In this document: in pieces, positions 20,147 through 54,653 of the stretch | How the letters are laid out: each line of letters begins with the position of its first letter | How positions within the stretch are numbered: the first letter of the stretch is position 1 | DNA from: Heliocidaris erythrogramma | Lineage: Eukaryota; Echinodermata; Echinoidea; Camarodonta; Echinometridae | DNA: 64,000 nt | Assembly: GCA_025617745.1 (NCBI GenBank) | Contig: CM046858.1 | Span: forward strand, 30,828,534 to 30,892,533 | Reading direction: 5' to 3' | The notes under the pieces: model-generated | Database searches by the model: none | What the model was told of the DNA's origin: nothing | The model's input: the letters and a program-made list of their open reading frames with translations, nothing else | Translations under genes and position numbers: made by a program

Positions 20147-21625
20147 GGATCAGTTCCAGCAGACCGATAAGTTGGTCTGTAGGTAGGTTAGGGTCACCCC
20201 TACACACACACACAAAGTTAAATCTACCATCCAAGATCTAGATATAGATGAAAATCTAAAAAAACTGCTCATCCCAAAAGATCCCAAAAGCCCTAACTTA
20301 TACTTTCTCCCAAAGATTCACAAAAAGAATAACCCTGGACGCCCAATAGTTTCCGCCTGCGCATGCCCCACAGTTTTTATATCTTGTTTCGTAGATCACC
20401 ATCTAAGATCCCTCGTCGCAGCCCTCCCATCATGCATCAAAGACACAACTGACTTCCTGAATCATATCCAAAGAATAAATATGACCCACTCCCCTCTCCC
20501 ATCCAGAACCACCCTCGTTACAGCAGACGTTACATCACTCTACACAAACATCCCCCACACAGATGGAATACAAGCTAGCAAGGACACCCTCAATAGGTGC
20601 AGTGACCCTAACCCACCTACAGACCAACTTATCCGTCTGCTGGAACTGAAATCCTTAAAGAACACAATGCAGTACTCCCCCAATCGTGGAAAAGGTATAT
20701 TGACGACATAACTTTTATTTGGGTTGGGTCCCCACGCACACTTTCTCGATTCGAACAAACGATGAATTCAATCCACCCCAAAATCAAATTCACCTTCGAA
20801 AATTCAGACAATAGTGTTCATTTTCTAGATCTGAACATCAAACTGGAACAAAATACCCTTCAAACTAACCTATAGAGCAAAGAAACGGATTCCCACACAT
20901 TTCTCTGAACGAATCCCTTTAGTAACAACGTATGGCCCCGACACACATAACATCCGTAAAATCCTGTCTCATCACCATCAAACTCTACACCAATCAGAAG
21001 ATCTCAAGAAAGTTTTTCCCGACCCCCCAATAGTAGCATACAGACGTGCATGCACACTCCGTGACATCTTAGTCTTCTCCGGAGACCCCAAATAAAAAAA
21101 AAGTCATGAAAACACAGAACAGACCGGCTTTTATAAATGCCCTGCAAAAAGATGTATTCTTCACACACATGTAATAGAGGGAAGGAAGTTTTTGAGCTCA
21201 GTAACTGGCGAAGAATTCCCAGTAACCACATGACTAGACTGTAAATCATCATGGGTAATTTATCTAATCACATGCAGAAAAAGCAAACAACAATATGTGG
21301 GCAAGACAGAAACCTCCCTCTATACTAGATTTAGCAACACCCGCTCAGAAATCCGTAACTTCAACTCATCCAACTACAAGGTCCTCCCATACACAATCCA
21401 TTTCAACCAACCAAATCACTCCATCAACGACGTACTCATAATGGGCATTGAATCTATTCACAACAAATCCCGTCAAACCATCCTCCATAGAGAATCCTTT
21501 TGGATCGGAAAGTTACACACTCTCAACCCGGAAGGCATTAATGTTGACCAATAACCCTTCACCCCGTATTACACACTCCCCACCCGGAAGGCATTAATGC
21601 TGACCAATAACCTTTCACCCTCAAA
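20147..21625 (+). mobile_element. Penelope-like element (RT plus GIY-YIG), broken
   Basis: The reverse transcriptase part shows LPKIHKKNNPGRPIVSA near 20310, then LVTADVTSLYTNIPHTDG (motif A, about 20513-20570), then a YIDDI box near 20700 and HFLDLNI. A PLE-typical PPIVAYRRACTLRDILV follows near 21020 and a Cys-rich linker FYKCPAKRC near 21130. The GIY-YIG endonuclease domain runs from about 21253 to 21553: QQYVGKTETSLYTRF, HSINDV, ESFWIGKLHTLNPEG. This order, RT then GIY-YIG, defines Penelope-like elements. The coding region is spread over several frames with a number of breaks. A 45-bp inverted copy of the RT segment at 20600-20645 lies at 20147-20195. The last codons of the GIY-YIG part are duplicated in tandem (about 21530-21560 and 21580-21612). 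Confidence 0.85.
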
Positions 21626-28573: not shown

Positions 28574-30685
28574 AATGCATCTCTATAGAAAATTTGAAAA
28601 AAATCTGTCAGGAAATGTGCCTCAGAGCGCACCCAAGATATCCACTAAAATATGACCTTTGACCCTATGAAAGACTGAACAATGGGGGCAGTATCAGCAA
28701 ACACTATAAAGGTCTAGAGTAATCTAAGACACACCTCCACATAAAATTTCAAAAAAATCCATCTAGAAATGTGGAAGTTAGAGCACACAAAAGACATATG
28801 ACCTTTGACCCTATAAAGGACGGAACAATGAGGGCAGCATTATCAAAAGTATAAATTTGTAGATTGTACCAAGATACATCTCCATACAAAATTTGTCAAG
28901 AAATGCAGAAGAGTGCAAGAAATGGACAAATGAGCTCTGACCTATAAAGGATGGAAGAACGAGGGCAGCATCACCAAAAAAGTAAAGATGTGTAGATTAT
29001 ACCGAGTTACATCTCCATGCAAGGTTTGAAAGAATTCAATTCATCCAGAAATGTGGCCTGCAGAGTGCACTCACGCCATCCCTCCGAAGTATGACCTTTG
29101 ACCCTATAAAAGACAGAACACTGGTGGCAGCATCACCAAAAACTATACGTGCGTAGACTTTACCAAGATACACTTCAATACAAAATTTGAACGAAATCTG
29201 TCAAGTAATGCTTTGACCCTATAAAGGACGGAACAATGAGGGCAGCATCACCATAAAGTAAAGATGTGTACATCTCCATGCAAAATTTGAAAGAAATCCA
29301 TGAAGAAATGTGGCCTGCAGAGTGCACTCACGCCATTCTCCAAAGTATGGCCTTTGACCCTATAAAAGACGGGACACTGGTGGCAGCATCACCAAAAGTA
29401 TAGGTTTTTAGATTACACCAAGAGACACCTTCGTGCAAAATTTGAACGAAATCAGTCAAGAAATGCAGAAGAGTGCACATATGGATAAATGACCTTTGAC
29501 CCTATAAAGGACGGAACAATGAGGGCAGCATCACCAAAAATAAAGATATGTAGATTATACCAAGATACATCTCCATACAAAATTTGTCAAGAAATGCAGA
29601 AGAGTGCAAGAAATGGACAAATGACCTCTGACCTATAAAGGATGGAAGAACGAGGGCAGCATCACCAAAAAAGTAAAGATGTGTAGATTATACCGAGTTA
29701 CATCTCCATGCAAGGTTTGAAAGAATTCAATTCATCCAGAAATGTGGCCTGCAGAGTGCACTCACGCCATCCCTCCGAAGTATGACCTTTGACCCTATAA
29801 AAGACGGAACACTGGTGGCAGCATCACCAAAAACTATACGTGCGTAGACTTCACCAAGATACACTTCAATACAAAATTTGAACGAAATCTGTCAAGTAAT
29901 GCTTTGACCCTATAAAGGACGGAACAATGAGGGCAGCATCACCATAAAGTAAAGATGTGTACATCTCCATGCAAAATTTGAAAGAAATCCATGAAGAAAT
30001 GTGGCCTGCAGAGTGCACTCACGCCATTCTCCAAAGTATGACCTTTGACCCTATAAAAGACGGGACAATGAGGGCAGCATCACCAAAAATAAAGATATGT
30101 AGATTATACCAAGACACATGTCCATACAAAATTTGAAAGAAATCCATCCAGAAATATGGCCTGCAGAGTGCACTCACGCCATCCCTCGAATCATGACATT
30201 TGACCCTATAAAAGACGGGACACTGGTGGCAGCATCACCAAAAACTATAGGTTTTTAGATTACACCAAGAGACACCTTCGTGCAAAATTTGAACGAAATC
30301 CGTCAAGAAATGCAGAAGAGTGCACATATGGATAAATGACCTTTGACCCTATAAAGGACGGAACAATGAGGGCAGCATCACCAAAAATAAAGATATGTAG
30401 ATTATACCAAGACACATGTCCATACAAAATTTGAAAGAAATCCATCCAGAAATATGGCCTGCAGAGTGCACTCACGCCATCCCTCGAATCATGACATTTG
30501 ACCCTATAAAAGACGGGACACTGGTGGCAGCATCACCAAAAACTATAGGTTTTTAGATTACACCAAGAGACACCTTCGTGCAAAATTTGAACGAAATCCG
30601 TCAAGAAATGCAGAAGAGTGCACAAAATGGATAAATGTCCTTTGACCCTATAAAGGACGGAACGAAAGGACCTCCGTACAAAGGC

Positions 30686-37564: not shown

Positions 37565-37825
37565 TCGCTAGTCATAAAGACCGCTATTCATAAAAAAAAA
37601 TATTCATAAGGACCGCTATTCATAATAAGACAAAAGGGTTCCTATTCATAAGGGTAATTATTCATAAGGACCGCCATTCATAATAAGACATAAGAATCGC
37701 TATTCATAATACCAAATCAGGGTCGTTAATCATTAGGGTCCCTATTCATAATACGAAAATAGGGTCGCTATTCATAAAGGTCGATATTCATAAAGGTCGC
37801 TATTCATAAAGGTCAATATTCATAA
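37565..37825 (+). repeat. ATTCATAA satellite, left block
   Basis: Irregular units of about 17-30 bp built on GTCGCTATTCATAA, with GACCGCTATTCATAA and AATACGAAAATAGG variants. They continue on the far side of the 289-bp array at 39696. Confidence 0.85.
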
Positions 37826-37884
37826 ATCCCAGTGTTAAAGATCGTATGCTCGATCTGTAATGAAAAACACAAGTCAGAAAAAAT

Positions 37885-37958
37885 TGGAACCAGCGGGATT
37901 CGAACCTGTCATCTACTGCTTGCCGGGCAGCGACTTAACCACCAGGCTATTCTGGTTC
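37885..37958 (-). tRNA. tRNA-like sequence, array copy 1
   Basis: GAACCAG at the start pairs fully with CTGGTTC at the end (7 bp). A GCTGC/GCAGT stem with loop CCGGCAA would give GGC, but position 33 is C rather than U. The D and T stems are poor. Most likely a tRNA-derived pseudogene or SINE head. Confidence 0.4.
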
Positions 37959-38173
37959 ACGGCCAAGTCACGACGAACTAGAATCAAATACCCAAGATCC
38001 TCTTCTTTCTGACTCATTAATATTCAAACGGTCCGCCGTGGACAATGGTTAGTAAACGAAGAAGCTTGACTGGGGAGGAATTTTTAATTTGTAAGCAAAT
38101 CTTTCGGCATATTACTCCCAGTGTTAAAGATCGTATGCTCGATCTGTAATGAAAAACACAAGTCAGAAAAAAT

Positions 38174-38247
38174 TGGAACCAGCGGGATTCGAACCTGTCA
38201 TCTACTGCTTGCCGGGCAGCGACTTAACCACCAGGCTATTCTGGTTC
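38174..38247 (-). tRNA. tRNA-like sequence, array copy 2
   Basis: Identical in outline to copy 1 and exactly 289 bp from it. The last minus-strand copy before the inversion point. Confidence 0.4.
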
Positions 38248-38634
38248 ACGGCCAAGTCACGACGAACTAGAATCAAATACCCAAGATCCTCTTCTTTCTG
38301 ACTCATTAATATTCAAACAGTCCGCCGTGGACAATGGTTAGTAAACGAAGAAGCTTGACTGGGGAGGAATTTTTAATTTGTAAGCAAATCTTTCTGGGGC
38401 TTGACTGGGGAGGAATTTTTAATTTTTAATTTGTAAGCAAATCTTTCGGCATATTACTCCCAGTGTTAACACTGGGAGTAATATGCCGAAAGATTTGCTT
38501 ACAAATTAAAAATTCCTCCCCAGTCAAGCTTCTTCGTTTACTAACCATTGTCCATGGCGGACCGTTTGAATATTAATGAGTCAGAAAGAAGAGGATCTTG
38601 GGTATTTGATTCTAGTTCGTCGTGACTTGGCCGT

Positions 38635-38708
38635 GAACCAGAATAGCCTGGTGGTTAAGTCGCTGCCCGGCAAGCAGTAGATGACAGGTTCGAATCCCGC
38701 TGGTTCCA
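38635..38708 (+). tRNA. tRNA-like sequence, array copy 3
   Basis: The B box GGTTCGAATCC matches the Pol III consensus and the A-box region reads TAGCCTGGTGG. Six T's at 38710-38715 directly after CCA would serve as a Pol III terminator. First plus-strand copy. Confidence 0.45.
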
Positions 38709-38923
38709 ATTTTTTCTGACTTTTGTTTTTCATTACAGATCGAGCATACGATCTTTAACACTGGGAGTAATATGCCGAAAGATTTGCTTACAAATTAAAA
38801 ATTCCTCCCCAGTCAAGCTTCTTCGTTTACTAACCATTGTCCACGGCGGACCGTTTGAATATTAATGAGTCAGAAAGAAGAGGATCTTGGGTATTTGATT
38901 CTAGTTCGTCGTGACTTGGCCGT

Positions 38924-38997
38924 GAACCAGAATAGCCTGGTGGTTAAGTCGCTGCCCGGCAAGCAGTAGATGACAGGTTCGAATCCCGCTGGTTCCA
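38924..38997 (+). tRNA. tRNA-like sequence, array copy 4
   Basis: Same sequence as copy 3, with the T6 run kept. Confidence 0.4.
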
Positions 38998-39212
38998 ATT
39001 TTTTCTGACTTGTGTTTTTCATTACAGATCGAGCATACGATCTTTAACACTGGGAGTAATATGCCGAAAGATTTGCTTACAAATTAAAAATTCCTCCCCA
39101 GTCAAGCTTCTTCGTTTACTAACCATTGTCCACGGCGGACCGTTTGAATATTAATGAGTCAGAAAGAAGAGGATCTTGGGTATTTGATTCTAGTTCGTCG
39201 TGACTTGGCCGT

Positions 39213-39286
39213 GAACCAGAATAGCCTGGTGGTTAAGTCGCTGCCCGGCAAGCAGTAGATGACAGGTTCGAATCCCGCTGGTTCCA
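39213..39286 (+). tRNA. tRNA-like sequence, array copy 5
   Basis: Same sequence as copy 3, with the T6 run kept. Confidence 0.4.
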
Positions 39287-39501
39287 ATTTTTTCTGACTT
39301 GTGTTTTTCATTACAGATCGAGCATACGATCTTTAACACTGGGAGTAATATGCCGAAAGATTTGCTTACAAATTAAAAATTCCTCCCCAGTCAAGCTTCT
39401 TCGTTTACTATCCATTGTCCACGACGGACCGTTTGAATATTAATGAGTCAGAAAGAAGAGGATCTTGGGTATTTGATTCTAGTTCGTCGTGACTTGGCCG
39501 T

Positions 39502-39575
39502 GAACCAGAATAGCCTGGTGGTTAAGTCGCTGCCCGGCAAGCAGTAGATGACAGGTTCGAATCCCGCTGGTTCCA
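39502..39575 (+). tRNA. tRNA-like sequence, array copy 6
   Basis: Same sequence as copy 3. The unit upstream of it has slight changes (TATCCATTGTCCACGACGG), showing that drift has begun outside the tRNA-like part. Confidence 0.4.
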
Positions 39576-39695
39576 ATTTTTTCTGACTTGTGTTTTTCAT
39601 TACAGATCGAGCATACGATCTTTAACACTGGGAGTAATATGCCGAAAGATTTGCTTACAAATTAAAAATTCCTCCCCAGTCAAGCTTCTTCGTTT

Positions 39696-40060
39696 AATAT
39701 TCATAAAGGTCGCTATTCATAAAGGTCAATATTCATAAGGGTCGCTATTCATAATCGGAGAAGAGGGTCGCTATTCATAATCAAAGAAGAGGGTCGCTAT
39801 TCATAATCGGAGAAGAGGGTCGCTATTCATAATCAGAGAAGAGGGTCGCTATTCATAATCAGAGAAGAGGGTCGCTATTCATAATCGAAGAAGAGGGTCG
39901 CTATTCATAATCAAAGATGAGGGTCGCTATTCATAATCGGAGAAGAGGGTCGCTATTCATAATCAAAGAAGAGGGTCGCTATTCATAATCGGAGAAAAGG
40001 GTCGCTATCCATATTCGAACAAAAGGGTCGCTATTCATAATAGAAGAAGAGGGTAGGGTT
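39696..40060 (+). repeat. ATTCATAA satellite, right block
   Basis: About a dozen units, most of them 26 bp: GGGTCGCTATTCATAA plus TCGGAGAAGA or TCAAAGAAGA. The first copies repeat AAGGTCAATATTCATAA seen at the end of the left block, so the 289-bp array seems to have been inserted into, or expanded within, this satellite. Confidence 0.9.
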
Positions 40061-45785: not shown

Positions 45786-47505
45786 ACTAGAAATGTGCAT
45801 TGCTGGTGCCGCGCAATGCGAAATGTATCCCCCGGCACTGGCAGCGATTTGAAGGAGGGACAAAGACCCTCCCCCATCCCCTCCCTCAAACAAAAGAATG
45901 GTGTAGAAATTGCCGCCAGTGGCCCGGAATATTGTCAACACTAGGAGCAGCATTACCAAAACGATTTGTGCAGATTAGAGTATAATGCATTTTTATAGAA
46001 AATTCAGAAGAAATGTGACCTCAGAGCGCACATAAGCCATCCACTAAAATATGACCTTTGATCCTATGAAAGACGGAACACTAGAGGCAGCATCACCAAA
46101 CAGTAAAGATGTGTAGATTATACCAAGATACATCTCCATACAAAATTTGAAAGAAATCCATCAAGAAATGTGGCCTGCAGAGTGCACTCACGCCATGCCC
46201 TGAAGTATGACCTTTGACCCTATAAAAGACGGAACACTGGTGGCAGCATCACCAAAAACTATAGGTTTTTAGATTACACCAAGAGACACCTTCATGCAAA
46301 ATTTGAACGAAATCTGTCAAGAAATACAGAAGTATGAGTGCAAGAAATGGAAAAATGACCTTTGACCCTATAAAGGACGGAACAATGAGGGCAGCATCAC
46401 CAAAAATTAAATATGTGTAGATTATACCAAGATACATCTCCATACAAAATTTGAATGAAATCCGTCAAGAAATGCAGAAGAGTGCACAAAAGGGACAAAT
46501 GAGCTTTGACCCTATAAAGGACGGAACAATGAGGGTAGCATCACCAAACAGTAAAGATGTGTAGATTATACCAAGATACATCTCCATACAAAATTTGAAA
46601 GAAATCCATCAAGAAATGTGGCCTGCAGAGTGCACTCACGCCATCCCTTGAAGTATGACCTTTGACCCTATAAAAGACGGGACACTGGTGGCAGCATCAC
46701 CAAAAAGTACAGGTTTTTAGATTACACCAAGGGACACCTTCATGCAAAATTTGAACGAAATCCGTCGAGAAATGCAGAAGAGTGCAAGAAATGGAAAAAT
46801 GACATTTGACCCTATAAAGGACGGAACAATGAGGGCAGCATCACCAAAAATTAAACATGTGTAGATTATACCAATATACATCTCCATACAAAATTTGAAC
46901 AAAATCCGTTGAGAAATGTGGCCTGCAGAGTGCACTCACGCCATGCCCTGAAGTATGACCTTTGACCCTATAAAAGACGGAACACTGGTGGCAGCATCAC
47001 CAAACACTATAGGTTTTTAAATTACACCAAGAGACACCTTCATGCAAAATTTGAACGAAATCCGTTGAGAAATGTGACCGCCAGAGCGCACACAAGAGTA
47101 CACACAAGACATCTATCAAAATATGACCTTTGACCCTATAAAAGACGGAACACTGGGGGCAGCATCACCAAAATCTAGAGGGTTCCAGATTTTACCAAGA
47201 GACACCTTCATACAAAATTTGAACAAAATCCGTTGAGAAATGTGACCGCTAGAGCGCACACAAACTATCCCAAAAAATATGGCCTTTTACCCTATGAAAG
47301 ATGGAACACTGGGGGCAGCATCACCAGAACTATAGGGTTCCAGATTTTACCAAGATACACGTCCACAGGAAGTCTGAAAGAAATTCGTCGAGAAATGTGA
47401 CCGCTAGAGCGCACACAAGAATGTGACGTGACGTGACGCGGCAGCGGCGGCGGCGAAACGCTGCTGAATCCAAAGTATCCTCCGGCATACTGCCGGGGGA
47501 TACAA
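45786..47505 (+). mobile_element. Element A2
   Basis: Starts ACTAGAAATGTGCATTGC and ends TGCCGGGGGATACAA. TTATA lies on both sides (45781-45785, 47506-47510), a perfect 5-bp duplication. Array of about 150-bp units alternating two unit types (GCAGAGTGCACTCACGCC and GAGTGCAAGAAATGG). Near the end is a GGCAGCGGCGGCGGCG run. It lacks both insertions found in A1. Confidence 0.9.
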
Positions 47506-53088: not shown

Positions 53089-54653
53089 ACTAGAAATGTG
53101 CATTGCTGGGGCCGCGCAATGCTAAATGTATCCCCCGGCACTGGCAGCGATTTGAAGGAGGGACAAAGACCCTCCCCCATCCCCTCCCTCAAACAAAAGG
53201 ATGGTGTAGAAATTAGATGTGTAGGTTTCACTAAGACACATCTTCATATAAAATTTGAAAGAAATGTGTTGAGAGATATACCAAGATACATCTCCATACA
53301 AAATTTGAAAGAAATCCGTTGAGAAATGTGGCCTGCAGAGTGCACTCACGCCATGCCCTGAAGTATGACCTTTGACCCTATAAAAGACGGAACACTGGTG
53401 GCAGCATCACCAAAAACTATAGGTTTTTAGATTACACCAAGAGACACCTTCATGCAAAATTTGAACGAAATCTGTCAAGAAATGCAGAAGTATGAGTGCA
53501 AGAAATGGAAAAATGACCTTTGACCCTATAAAGGACGGAACAATGAGGGCAGCATCACCAAAAATTAAATATGTGTAGATTATACCAAGAGACACCTTCA
53601 TGCAAAATTTGAACGAAATCCGTCAAGAAATGCAGAAGAGTGCAAGAAATGGAAAAATGACCTTTGACCCTATAAAGGACGGAACAATGAGGGCAGCATC
53701 ACCAAACAGTAAAGATGTGTAGATTATACCAAGATACATCTCCATACAGAATTTGAAAGAAATCCATCAAGAAATGTGGCCTGCAGAGTGCACTCACGCC
53801 ATTCCCTGAAATATGACCTTTGACCCTATAAAAGACGGAACACTGGTGGCAGCATCACCAAAAACTATAGGTTTTTAGAATACACCAAGAAACACCTTCA
53901 TGCGAAATTTGAACGAAATCCGTCAAGAAATGCAGAAGTAAGAGTGCAAGAAATGGAAAAATGACCTTTGACCCTATAAAGGACGGAACAATGAGGGCAG
54001 CATCACCAAAAATTAAATGTGTACATTATACCAAGATACATCTCCATACAAAATTTGAACAAAATCCGTTGAGAAATGTGGCCTGCAGAGTGCACTCACG
54101 CCATGCCCTGAAGTATGACCTTTGACCCTATAAAAGACGGAACACTGGTGGCAGCATCACCAAACACTATAGGTTTTTAAATTACACCAAGAGACACCTT
54201 CATGCAAAATTTGAACGAAATCCGTTGAGAAATGTGACCGCCAGAGCGCACACAAGAGTACACACAAGACATCTATCAAAATATGACCTTTGACCCTATA
54301 AAAGACGGAACACTGGGGGCAGCATCACCAAAATCTAGAGGGTTCCAGATTTTACCAAGAGACACCTTCATACAAAATTTGAACAAAATCCGTTGAGAAA
54401 TGTGACCGCTAGAGCGCACACAAACTATCCCCAAAAATATGGCCTTTTACCCTATAAAAGACGGAACACTGGGGGCAGCATCACCAGAAACTATAGGGGT
54501 CCAGATTTTACCAAGATACACGTCCACAGGAAGTCTGAAAAAAATTCGTCGAGAAATGTGACCGCTAGAGCGCACACAAGAATGTGACGCGGCGGCGGCG
54601 GCGAAACGCTGCTGAATCCAAAGTATCCTCCGGCATACTGCCGGGGGATACAA
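53089..54653 (+). mobile_element. Element A3
   Basis: Same termini as A2. TAATA lies on both sides (53084-53088 and 54654-54658), a perfect 5-bp duplication with a different target. Its array follows the same unit order as A2 over most of its length, and the last 600 bp are nearly identical to A2. Confidence 0.9.

What the first reader, a model, noticed from the sequence alone, without database searches (positions are those of the whole stretch)
37826..39695. Head-to-head array of 289-bp units, each with a tRNA-like sequence and Pol III signals
Six near-identical tRNA-like sequences recur every 289 bp, two on one strand and four on the other, around a perfect palindrome. Each has a fully paired acceptor-like end, a consensus B box and a T6 run right after it. 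The cloverleaf is imperfect and position 33 of the loop is C, so ordinary translation use is doubtful. Near-identity of the copies implies recent spread or homogenisation. It could be a tRNA-derived satellite, a tandem SINE, or a cluster making an unusual small RNA.
Basis: partly seen in the sequence, partly recalled or inferred. Interest (0 to 1): 0.75.

Follow-up and report, generated by a model that had tools for sequence, protein, structure and literature searches.

The report
tRNA-headed, Penelope-type hitchhiking retroposon family
The repeated tRNA-like units are one copy of a young, very abundant parasitic DNA family that seems to be copied from RNA by Penelope-type retrotransposon enzymes, a combination of parts we did not find described.

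Summary
In detail: six tRNA-like copies, 289-bp spacing, two minus and four plus, around a perfect 94-bp palindrome. It is not a local satellite: an exact 28-mer of the unit occurs 6,083 times in the 1.06-Gb eukaryotic genome. I mapped 108 clusters in 99 loci. 67 of 101 tested have clear target-site duplications, modally 12 bp (permuted flanks 0.000). 69 of 108 are head-to-head. In 59 of these 69 one outer end lies at site A (median s3) and the other at site B (median s257), about 35 nt apart; none is A/A. This matches the 'tail' and the two adjacent reverse-transcription starts published for Penelope-like elements (PMC3846280, PMC11167929). GIY-YIG Penelope-type frames abound in the genome. 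The layout resembles animal retrozymes, but no hammerhead was found. The tRNA-like part varies least among propagating copies. Best reading: a non-autonomous, tRNA-headed, Penelope-mobilised retroposon. Open: the partner element, and whether the template RNA is circular or multimeric. The window copy's own left end is atypical.

The parts
37827..39695 (.). whole insertion: two head-to-head arms of 289-bp units
37815..37826 (.). left copy of 12-bp target-site duplication AATATTCATAAA (inside a TATTCATAA minisatellite, so ambiguous here)
   Evidence: sequence
39696..39707 (.). right copy of the 12-bp duplication
   Evidence: sequence
37827..38394 (-). minus arm, 1.97 units, outer end at unit position s228 (atypical end)
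38399..38469 (-). short minus piece s217-280 with a 7-bp insertion, beside the joint; read here as a template jump (inference)
38466..39694 (+). plus arm, 4.25 units, from s217 to the A-end (s289, CTTCTTCGTT)
38421..38514 (.). perfect palindrome 2 x 47 bp at the head-to-head joint
37887..37958 (-). tRNA-like copy (s97-168)
   Evidence: B box complement at 37896; coordinates derived from the unit map
38176..38247 (-). tRNA-like copy
   Evidence: B box complement at 38185; coordinates derived
38635..38706 (+). tRNA-like copy
   Evidence: B box at 38687; coordinates derived
38924..38995 (+). tRNA-like copy
39213..39284 (+). tRNA-like copy
39502..39573 (+). tRNA-like copy
38999..39004 (+). T6 run (s172-177) after a tRNA-like copy, one of six; pairs with AAAGAA (s47-52) in the predicted rod
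   Evidence: sequence; folds; letters checked
20187..21551 (+). decayed Penelope-like element in several frames: reverse-transcriptase-like pieces (20187-20711, 20612-20872), linker pieces, GIY-YIG piece 21234-21551. Not shown to be the partner; listed as local evidence of the machinery
   Evidence: GIY-YIG by Pfam, 27.7 bits over cut-off 22.6. The RT piece has no Pfam or PDB match; its name rests on recalled motifs and on sharing open frames with the GIY-YIG hits elsewhere in the genome

Best explanation
The 289-bp unit is the monomer of a young non-autonomous retroposon carrying a tRNA-like domain. An RNA of the tRNA-sense strand is reverse-transcribed by a Penelope-like (PLE) enzyme. Both strands of an AT-rich target are cut about 12 bp apart; one cut end starts copying at site A (s285-289/1-6) and the other at site B (mostly s249-266), about 35 nt upstream. 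Each copy runs 5'-ward for about 30 bp to many units, often pausing at s213-236, and the two copies are joined head-to-head, giving inverted tandem arms between direct repeats. Shown: the A/B rule, the 12-bp duplications, inversion, abundance, near-clonality within insertions, and many PLE-type frames in the genome. Inferred: PLE as the enzyme, a circular (or multimeric) RNA as template, and a function for the conserved tRNA-like part (promoter, stability or protein docking).
For: A/B ends: 59 of 69 multi-arm clusters have one A and one B, 0 A/A, 2 B/B, 8 with another end; shuffled mean 30.9, 0 of 20,000 shuffles as high; chromosome-1 set 38 of 41, no A/A or B/B. After trimming duplications A has median s3 (n 60) and B median s257 (n 53), 35 nt apart, within the 30-40 bp PLE 'tail' and like the two adjacent internal RT starts, both strands cut and extended at AT-rich DNA, of PMC11167929, and the optional 31-bp tail with inverted pLTR of PMC3846280. 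Duplications: 67 of 101 score >=9, 0.000 in 10 permutations; 35 exactly 12 bp, 17 at 13; 60 of 11-14 bp are 81.7% AT, flanks 63.5%. PLE frames: RT-piece 150 scored hits of 1,320 candidates and GIY-YIG piece 150 of 1,551; several share one open frame of 1058-1091 aa, and some lie in tandem or opposed, e.g. C20:8851729-8861878. Clonality: common variants shared by opposite arms 80 of 97 comparisons, same arm 133 of 189, different insertions 5,213 of 85,434 (one insertion, L084, gives 24 of the 97). Pause: 42 of 138 inner ends at s213-236, 11.5 expected, after 0, 1, 2 or 4 passes. Polarity: sense unit folds at z -3.66, antisense 0.10. Conservation: variants seen in >=2 insertions number 1 in the 52 positions s97-148 and 18 in the 40 positions s211-250.
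Against: The A/B region, which a PLE should recognise, is among the more variable parts. The window copy has an A-end, but its left end is at s228, neither A nor B. 34 of 101 clusters lack a duplication scoring >=9: 22 of the 34 single-arm and 12 of the 67 multi-arm clusters tested; other transposons inserted at s~217 explain some. A single circular template does not explain variants present in some but not all units (18 of 75 variant classes in 12 long arms) or the period-2 and period-4 patterns in L015 and L035, which suggest multimeric templates or DNA-level duplication. The rotifer PLE duplications that I read of are 8-9 bp, not 12. The RT piece is named from recalled motifs only. No expression data. 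No covariation supports the rod or the cloverleaf.
Confidence: 0.77

Rival explanations
1. Sub-reading: an animal retrozyme proper, with an unrecognised or minimal hammerhead (or another self-cleaving ribozyme) that makes 289-nt circles copied by rolling reverse transcription.
For: Tandem ~300-bp units, low GC (0.433), direct repeats, thousands of copies and proposed PLE mobilisation are as described for animal retrozymes (PMC7229834). Rfam also misses the small hammerhead-like cores visible in L109 and L110, so Rfam silence is weak. Arms of several passes are natural on a circle.
Against: No CTGANGA core with <=1 mismatch followed within about 45 nt by GAAA on either strand of the unit. 0 of 253 segments (158 distinct, a few not of the unit) that begin at CGATCTTT (s209) hold CTGANGA...GAAA. 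No ribozyme among Rfam matches up to E 10.
Confidence: 0.3
2. Sub-reading: linear multimer model. Transcripts of existing arrays are copied by PLE enzyme with internal initiation; no circle is needed, and arrays also expand by unequal exchange.
For: PLE reverse transcription starts internally on RNA in vitro (PMC11167929). L015 and L035 show period-2 and period-4 blocks, L039 and L106 show a variant in only part of the array.
Against: Median bp per cluster in the chromosome-1 set is only 352, so long source arrays would be needed to keep producing arms of 4 to more than 22 units.
Confidence: 0.4
3. Classical tRNA-derived SINE moved by a LINE, made tandem and inverted by twin priming and unequal exchange.
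For: tRNA-like domain with an exact B box; direct repeats; dispersed young copies.
Against: T6 stop inside the unit; no poly-A or simple-repeat tail seen at the ends printed; both arms copy overlapping parts of the unit, which twin priming on one linear monomer would not give; two fixed ends A and B.
Confidence: 0.1
4. Plain satellite or assembly artefact.
For: Tandem, near-identical units.
Against: Dispersed bounded insertions with duplications; same inversions at independent loci.
Confidence: 0.02
5. Miniature LTR retrotransposon (TRIM) with the tRNA-like part as primer-binding site.
For: My first reading: ~99-bp direct repeats TGACT...AGTCA beside TGGAACCAGCGGG in the antisense reading (note, sequence).
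Against: Real insertion ends are not at those LTR-like ends; duplications are modally 12 bp, longer than the 4-6 bp usual for LTR elements (recalled).
Confidence: 0.01

Closest known systems
Animal non-LTR retrozymes (Cervera and de la Pena 2020, PMC7229834; part 1 of 6 of the text, passages and the discussion read)
   Same: ~300-bp tandem units from dimers to many-mers, low GC, direct repeats longer than 4 bp, thousands of dispersed copies, PLE proposed as the mobiliser, highly self-paired RNA
   Different: no hammerhead found here; a conserved tRNA-like domain; a two-end rule and a modal 12-bp duplication, not mentioned in what I read
Penelope-like elements (PMC3846280 passages; PMC11167929 parts 1-2 of 4 read)
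   Same: inverted head-to-head ends, optional ~31-bp (30-40 bp) tail at one end, two adjacent internal RT start sites, both target strands cut and extended, AT-rich targets, partial tandems
   Different: no coding sequence; 12-bp rather than the 8-9-bp duplications that I read of; no shared sequence shown
tRNA-derived SINEs (recalled; start of the PMC7245038 abstract seen in a listing)
   Same: tRNA-like domain, non-autonomous, high copy number, young
   Different: tandem units, no simple-repeat tail, internal T6, PLE-like ends instead of LINE-like ends
Schistosoma SMalpha elements (PMC8490949 passages; a Pol III promoter in them is recalled)
   Same: SINE-like repeat of similar length (335 bp) among satellite-like repeats
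   Different: carries a hammerhead; no A/B end rule in the passages read

Membership tests
Animal retrozyme | tandem units of ~170-400 bp, dispersed | tested here: met
Animal retrozyme | target-site duplications longer than 4 bp | tested here: met
   modal 12 bp; 67 of 101 with score >=9
Animal retrozyme | type I hammerhead ribozyme | tested here: not met
   small variants escape Rfam but would have to lack the CTGANGA core as searched
Animal retrozyme | expressed circular RNA | not testable with these tools
   no RNA data
PLE-mobilised element | two RT start sites 30-40 nt apart, seen as a tail at one end | tested here: met
   59 of 69 A/B, 0 A/A; medians 35 nt apart
PLE-mobilised element | head-to-head inverted copies | tested here: met
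   69 of 108 clusters
PLE-mobilised element | AT-rich target | tested here: met
   81.7% against 63.5% AT
PLE-mobilised element | active PLE in the same genome | tested here: inconclusive
   many PLE-type frames, RT-like and GIY-YIG hits within one open frame of 1058-1091 aa; activity not testable
PLE-mobilised element | terminal sequence shared with a PLE | tested here: inconclusive
   3 PLE stretches of 751 bp only, no significant match
tRNA-derived SINE | Pol III A and B boxes | tested here: inconclusive
   B box exact; A box with G at position 14 and two extra bases before it (by eye; consensus recalled)
tRNA-derived SINE | 3' tail of A or simple repeats | tested here: not met
   ends printed
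tRNA-derived SINE | Pol III transcript reaching the 3' end | tested here: inconclusive
   T6 at s172-177 lies upstream of A and B (sequence); leaky termination is not excluded and no RNA was seen
Functional tRNA gene | tRNA covariance score over cut-off | tested here: not met
TRIM / LTR element | insertion bounded by LTR ends | tested here: not met

The most novel reading that the evidence does not exclude
A viroid-like 289-nt circular RNA with a tRNA-like domain but no known ribozyme, formed by a host or novel processing activity, that has become a mobile genomic parasite by seizing Penelope enzymes: in effect the SINE of the third class of retroelements.
Probability: 0.3. Interest if true: 0.82.

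Novelty: new variant of a known kind. Interest (0 to 1): 0.62.

Why it matters
SINEs are known as riders of LINEs, and animal retrozymes as likely riders of Penelope elements through hammerhead-made circles. A tRNA-headed rider without a detectable hammerhead, with thousands of mostly young copies, separates these features and gives a large natural record of how Penelope enzymes may start, pause, jump and join. It makes two open questions directly testable: what the PLE template looks like in vivo (circle or multimer), and how a PLE recognises its RNA.

Tried and rejected
The LTR/TRIM reading (note) was dropped when the true insertion ends were mapped. The idea that copies with a gap at s~217 are a longer autonomous form was dropped: the inserts in L048, L061 and L103 do not match each other, two of the three recur in other loci, and they sit at a TTAA. 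A direct search for the tRNA part in the genome returned nothing, which I put down to masking of common words, so I used an exact pattern. Rfam did not report the small hammerhead-like cores in PLE stretches. Covariation in rod or cloverleaf: none, too little variation. Viral contigs: 0 exact matches. Checks of the RT-like piece against Pfam and PDB sequences: 0 matches. Searches for a printed description of a tRNA-bearing, PLE-mobilised element listed none that I recognised; that library lacks most subscription papers. The organism was not identified.

Caveats on counts: the 38 sites fetched are the best-scoring ones and so favour whole units. The 60 chromosome-1 regions cover, with L042, all 62 clusters into which I grouped by eye the hits listed; they need an exact match at s149-176 in at least one unit, and so favour copies intact there. 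The duplication test left out 7 of 108 clusters, too short or too near a locus end. Six of the 15 long-arm or single-arm oddities were not examined one by one. L035 and one L033 cluster are cut by the end of the fetched stretch. Single-arm 5' ends near s215 are partly due to inserted transposons.

Full report
Observation. The array is as described. TRF reports period 289 at 37827-38394 and 38466-39696 with 99% matches; six B boxes lie at the expected places, two minus and four plus, and the joint is a perfect 94-bp palindrome at 38421-38514. The tRNA-like part fails as a tRNA gene: ARAGORN 0, Rfam none at cut-off, tRNA-Sec 19.4 bits, E 0.61, at lax settings.

Genome-wide. The window is C6:30828534-30892533 of a 1.064-Gb genome in 26 contigs. 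A 290-bp query brought 159 matches from 39 scored of 505 candidates on many chromosomes, the near-full-length ones 98-100% identical. An exact 28-mer (s149-176) occurs 2927+3156 times, with 0+0 for the reversed control. The hits listed reach C1:20.14 Mb and fall into 62 clusters, as I grouped them by eye; by extrapolation about 3,000-4,000 loci in the genome.

Anatomy. I fetched 38 sites and 60 chromosome-1 regions and mapped arms against a sense unit S (s1 = TACTAACC, s289 = ...CTTCTTCGTT, tRNA-like s97-168). Result, window included: 108 clusters in 99 loci, 39 single-arm, 66 two-arm, 3 three-arm. Outer ends cluster at A and B; after trimming duplications of 10-14 bp, A lies at s285-289/1-6 (n 60, median s3) and the rest mostly at s249-266 (n 53, median s257), with strays at s32, s228, s234, s241, s243 and s271. 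In 59 of 69 multi-arm clusters one end is A and the other B, none A/A, 2 B/B and 8 with another end; shuffled mean 30.9, 0 of 20,000 as high; chromosome-1 set alone 38 of 41 (classes A s280-15, B s240-270). Duplications: 67 of 101 tested clusters score >=9 against 0.000 in 10 permutations of the flanks; exact length 12 in 35 and 13 in 17. 55 of 67 multi-arm and 12 of 34 single-arm clusters pass; in the chromosome-1 set 39 of 63. Sixty duplications of 11-14 bp are 81.7% AT, flanks 63.5%. Inner ends: 42 of 138 at s213-236, 11.5 expected. Of 180 arms over 30 bp, 88 exceed one unit and 28 exceed two; the longest is 6,596 bp and is cut by the end of the fetched stretch.

Template. Variants common in the family are concordant within an insertion: opposite arms 80 of 97 comparisons (24 clusters, L084 alone 24 comparisons), same arm 133 of 189, different insertions 5,213 of 85,434. 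Rare variants shared per kb: same arm 0.593, opposite arms 1.429, different insertions 0.029; only 5 of 38 insertions contribute opposite-arm sharing, and L084 gives 15 of the 26. In L053 the A-run at s258 differs from unit to unit while 12+T is shared by the units that cover it, as expected of slippage in repeated passes, though DNA slippage could do it. Against one circle per insertion: among 75 variant classes in 12 arms of three or more units, 11 are in all units, 46 in one and 18 in some; in L015 two variants alternate, and in L035 several pairs of units four apart share variants. I therefore leave circle versus multimer open.

RNA strand. The sense unit folds at -85.6 kcal/mol, z -3.66, 0 of 200 shuffles as good; the antisense z is 0.10. 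In the predicted long hairpin the T6 run (s172-177) pairs with AAAGAA (s47-52). Neither the rod nor the cloverleaf has covariation. Variants seen in at least two of the chromosome-1 clusters number 10 in s1-30, 6 in s31-96, 1 in s97-148, 3 in s149-176, 7 in s177-210, 18 in s211-250 and 15 in s251-289; singletons run at 7.0 per 1000 covered sites in s97-148 and 9.1-19.5 in the other parts outside s149-176. Per-insertion rates are lower in s97-148 than in s31-96 plus s177-210 in 40 of 52 insertions, higher in 4, equal in 8. Insertions share ancestry, so these are not independent points, and two variants in the compared parts (s75, s81) are widespread. s149-176 was fixed by the choice of loci.

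Mobiliser. The A/B rule is what PLE papers call the tail: an optional 31-bp extension at one of the inverted pLTRs (PMC3846280, passages), explained by two adjacent internal RT starts, with both target strands cut and extended at AT-rich DNA (PMC11167929, parts 1-2 of 4). The window has a decayed PLE-type copy at 20187-21551: the last piece is GIY-YIG by Pfam (27.7 bits, cut-off 22.6), while the RT-like piece has no Pfam or PDB match and is named from recalled motifs. Both pieces have many relatives in the genome, 150 scored of 1,320 and of 1,551 candidates. Several pairs lie in one open frame, for example 1091 aa at C20:8851729-8853429 and 1058 aa at C12:45097831-45099546, and some stand in tandem or opposed, for example GIY-YIG hits at C20:8851729 -, 8855862 -, 8860012 - and 8861561 +. 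Three 751-bp stretches upstream of RT-like hits show no real similarity to the unit, so the partner is not named.

Comparison. Animal retrozymes share size, tandem layout, GC, direct repeats and the proposed mobiliser (PMC7229834) but are defined by a hammerhead, which I tested and did not find: no core on either strand of the unit, 0 of 253 segments, no ribozyme among Rfam matches to E 10. So it works like a retrozyme without meeting the definition.

The window copy. It ends in A on the right; its left end is at s228 and an extra piece (s217-280) lies at the joint. It is thus one of the 8 of 69 multi-arm clusters with an end of another kind. It carries C at s249, where 105 of 108 clusters show T in at least one unit.

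Noticed in passing
window 20187-21551: decayed Penelope-type copy in several reading frames, with a GIY-YIG piece, in the same window as the array
   Followed up: partly
C12:18858807-18889677 of the window's genome: array of tRNA genes, most scoring 74.2 bits, successive listed genes often ~280-310 bp apart, similar in spacing to the retroposon unit
   Followed up: no
L109 305-328 and L110 47-72: small hammerhead-like cores (CTGATGA...GAAA and CTGAAGA...GAAA) in stretches upstream of Penelope RT-like hits, not reported by Rfam
   Followed up: partly
C20:8851729-8861878 and C12:45090003-45099546 of the window's genome: Penelope-type frames in tandem (~4.0-4.15 kb apart) and opposed, the same layout as the short unit
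   Followed up: no
L048, L061, L103 at unit position s~217: unrelated transposons inserted in the TTAA of the unit in three copies
   Followed up: partly
window 37566-37826 and 39698-40054; L029 left flank: TATTCATAA minisatellite around this array and, with similar following sequence, beside another copy on C5
   Followed up: no
window 30038-30663, 46008-47420, 53365-54581: related ~150/300-bp tandem repeats with ATGACCTTTGACCCTATAAA
   Followed up: no
L107 1058-1205: inverted repeat with a sub-threshold miRNA-family match, 81.6 bits against a cut-off of 139.7
   Followed up: no
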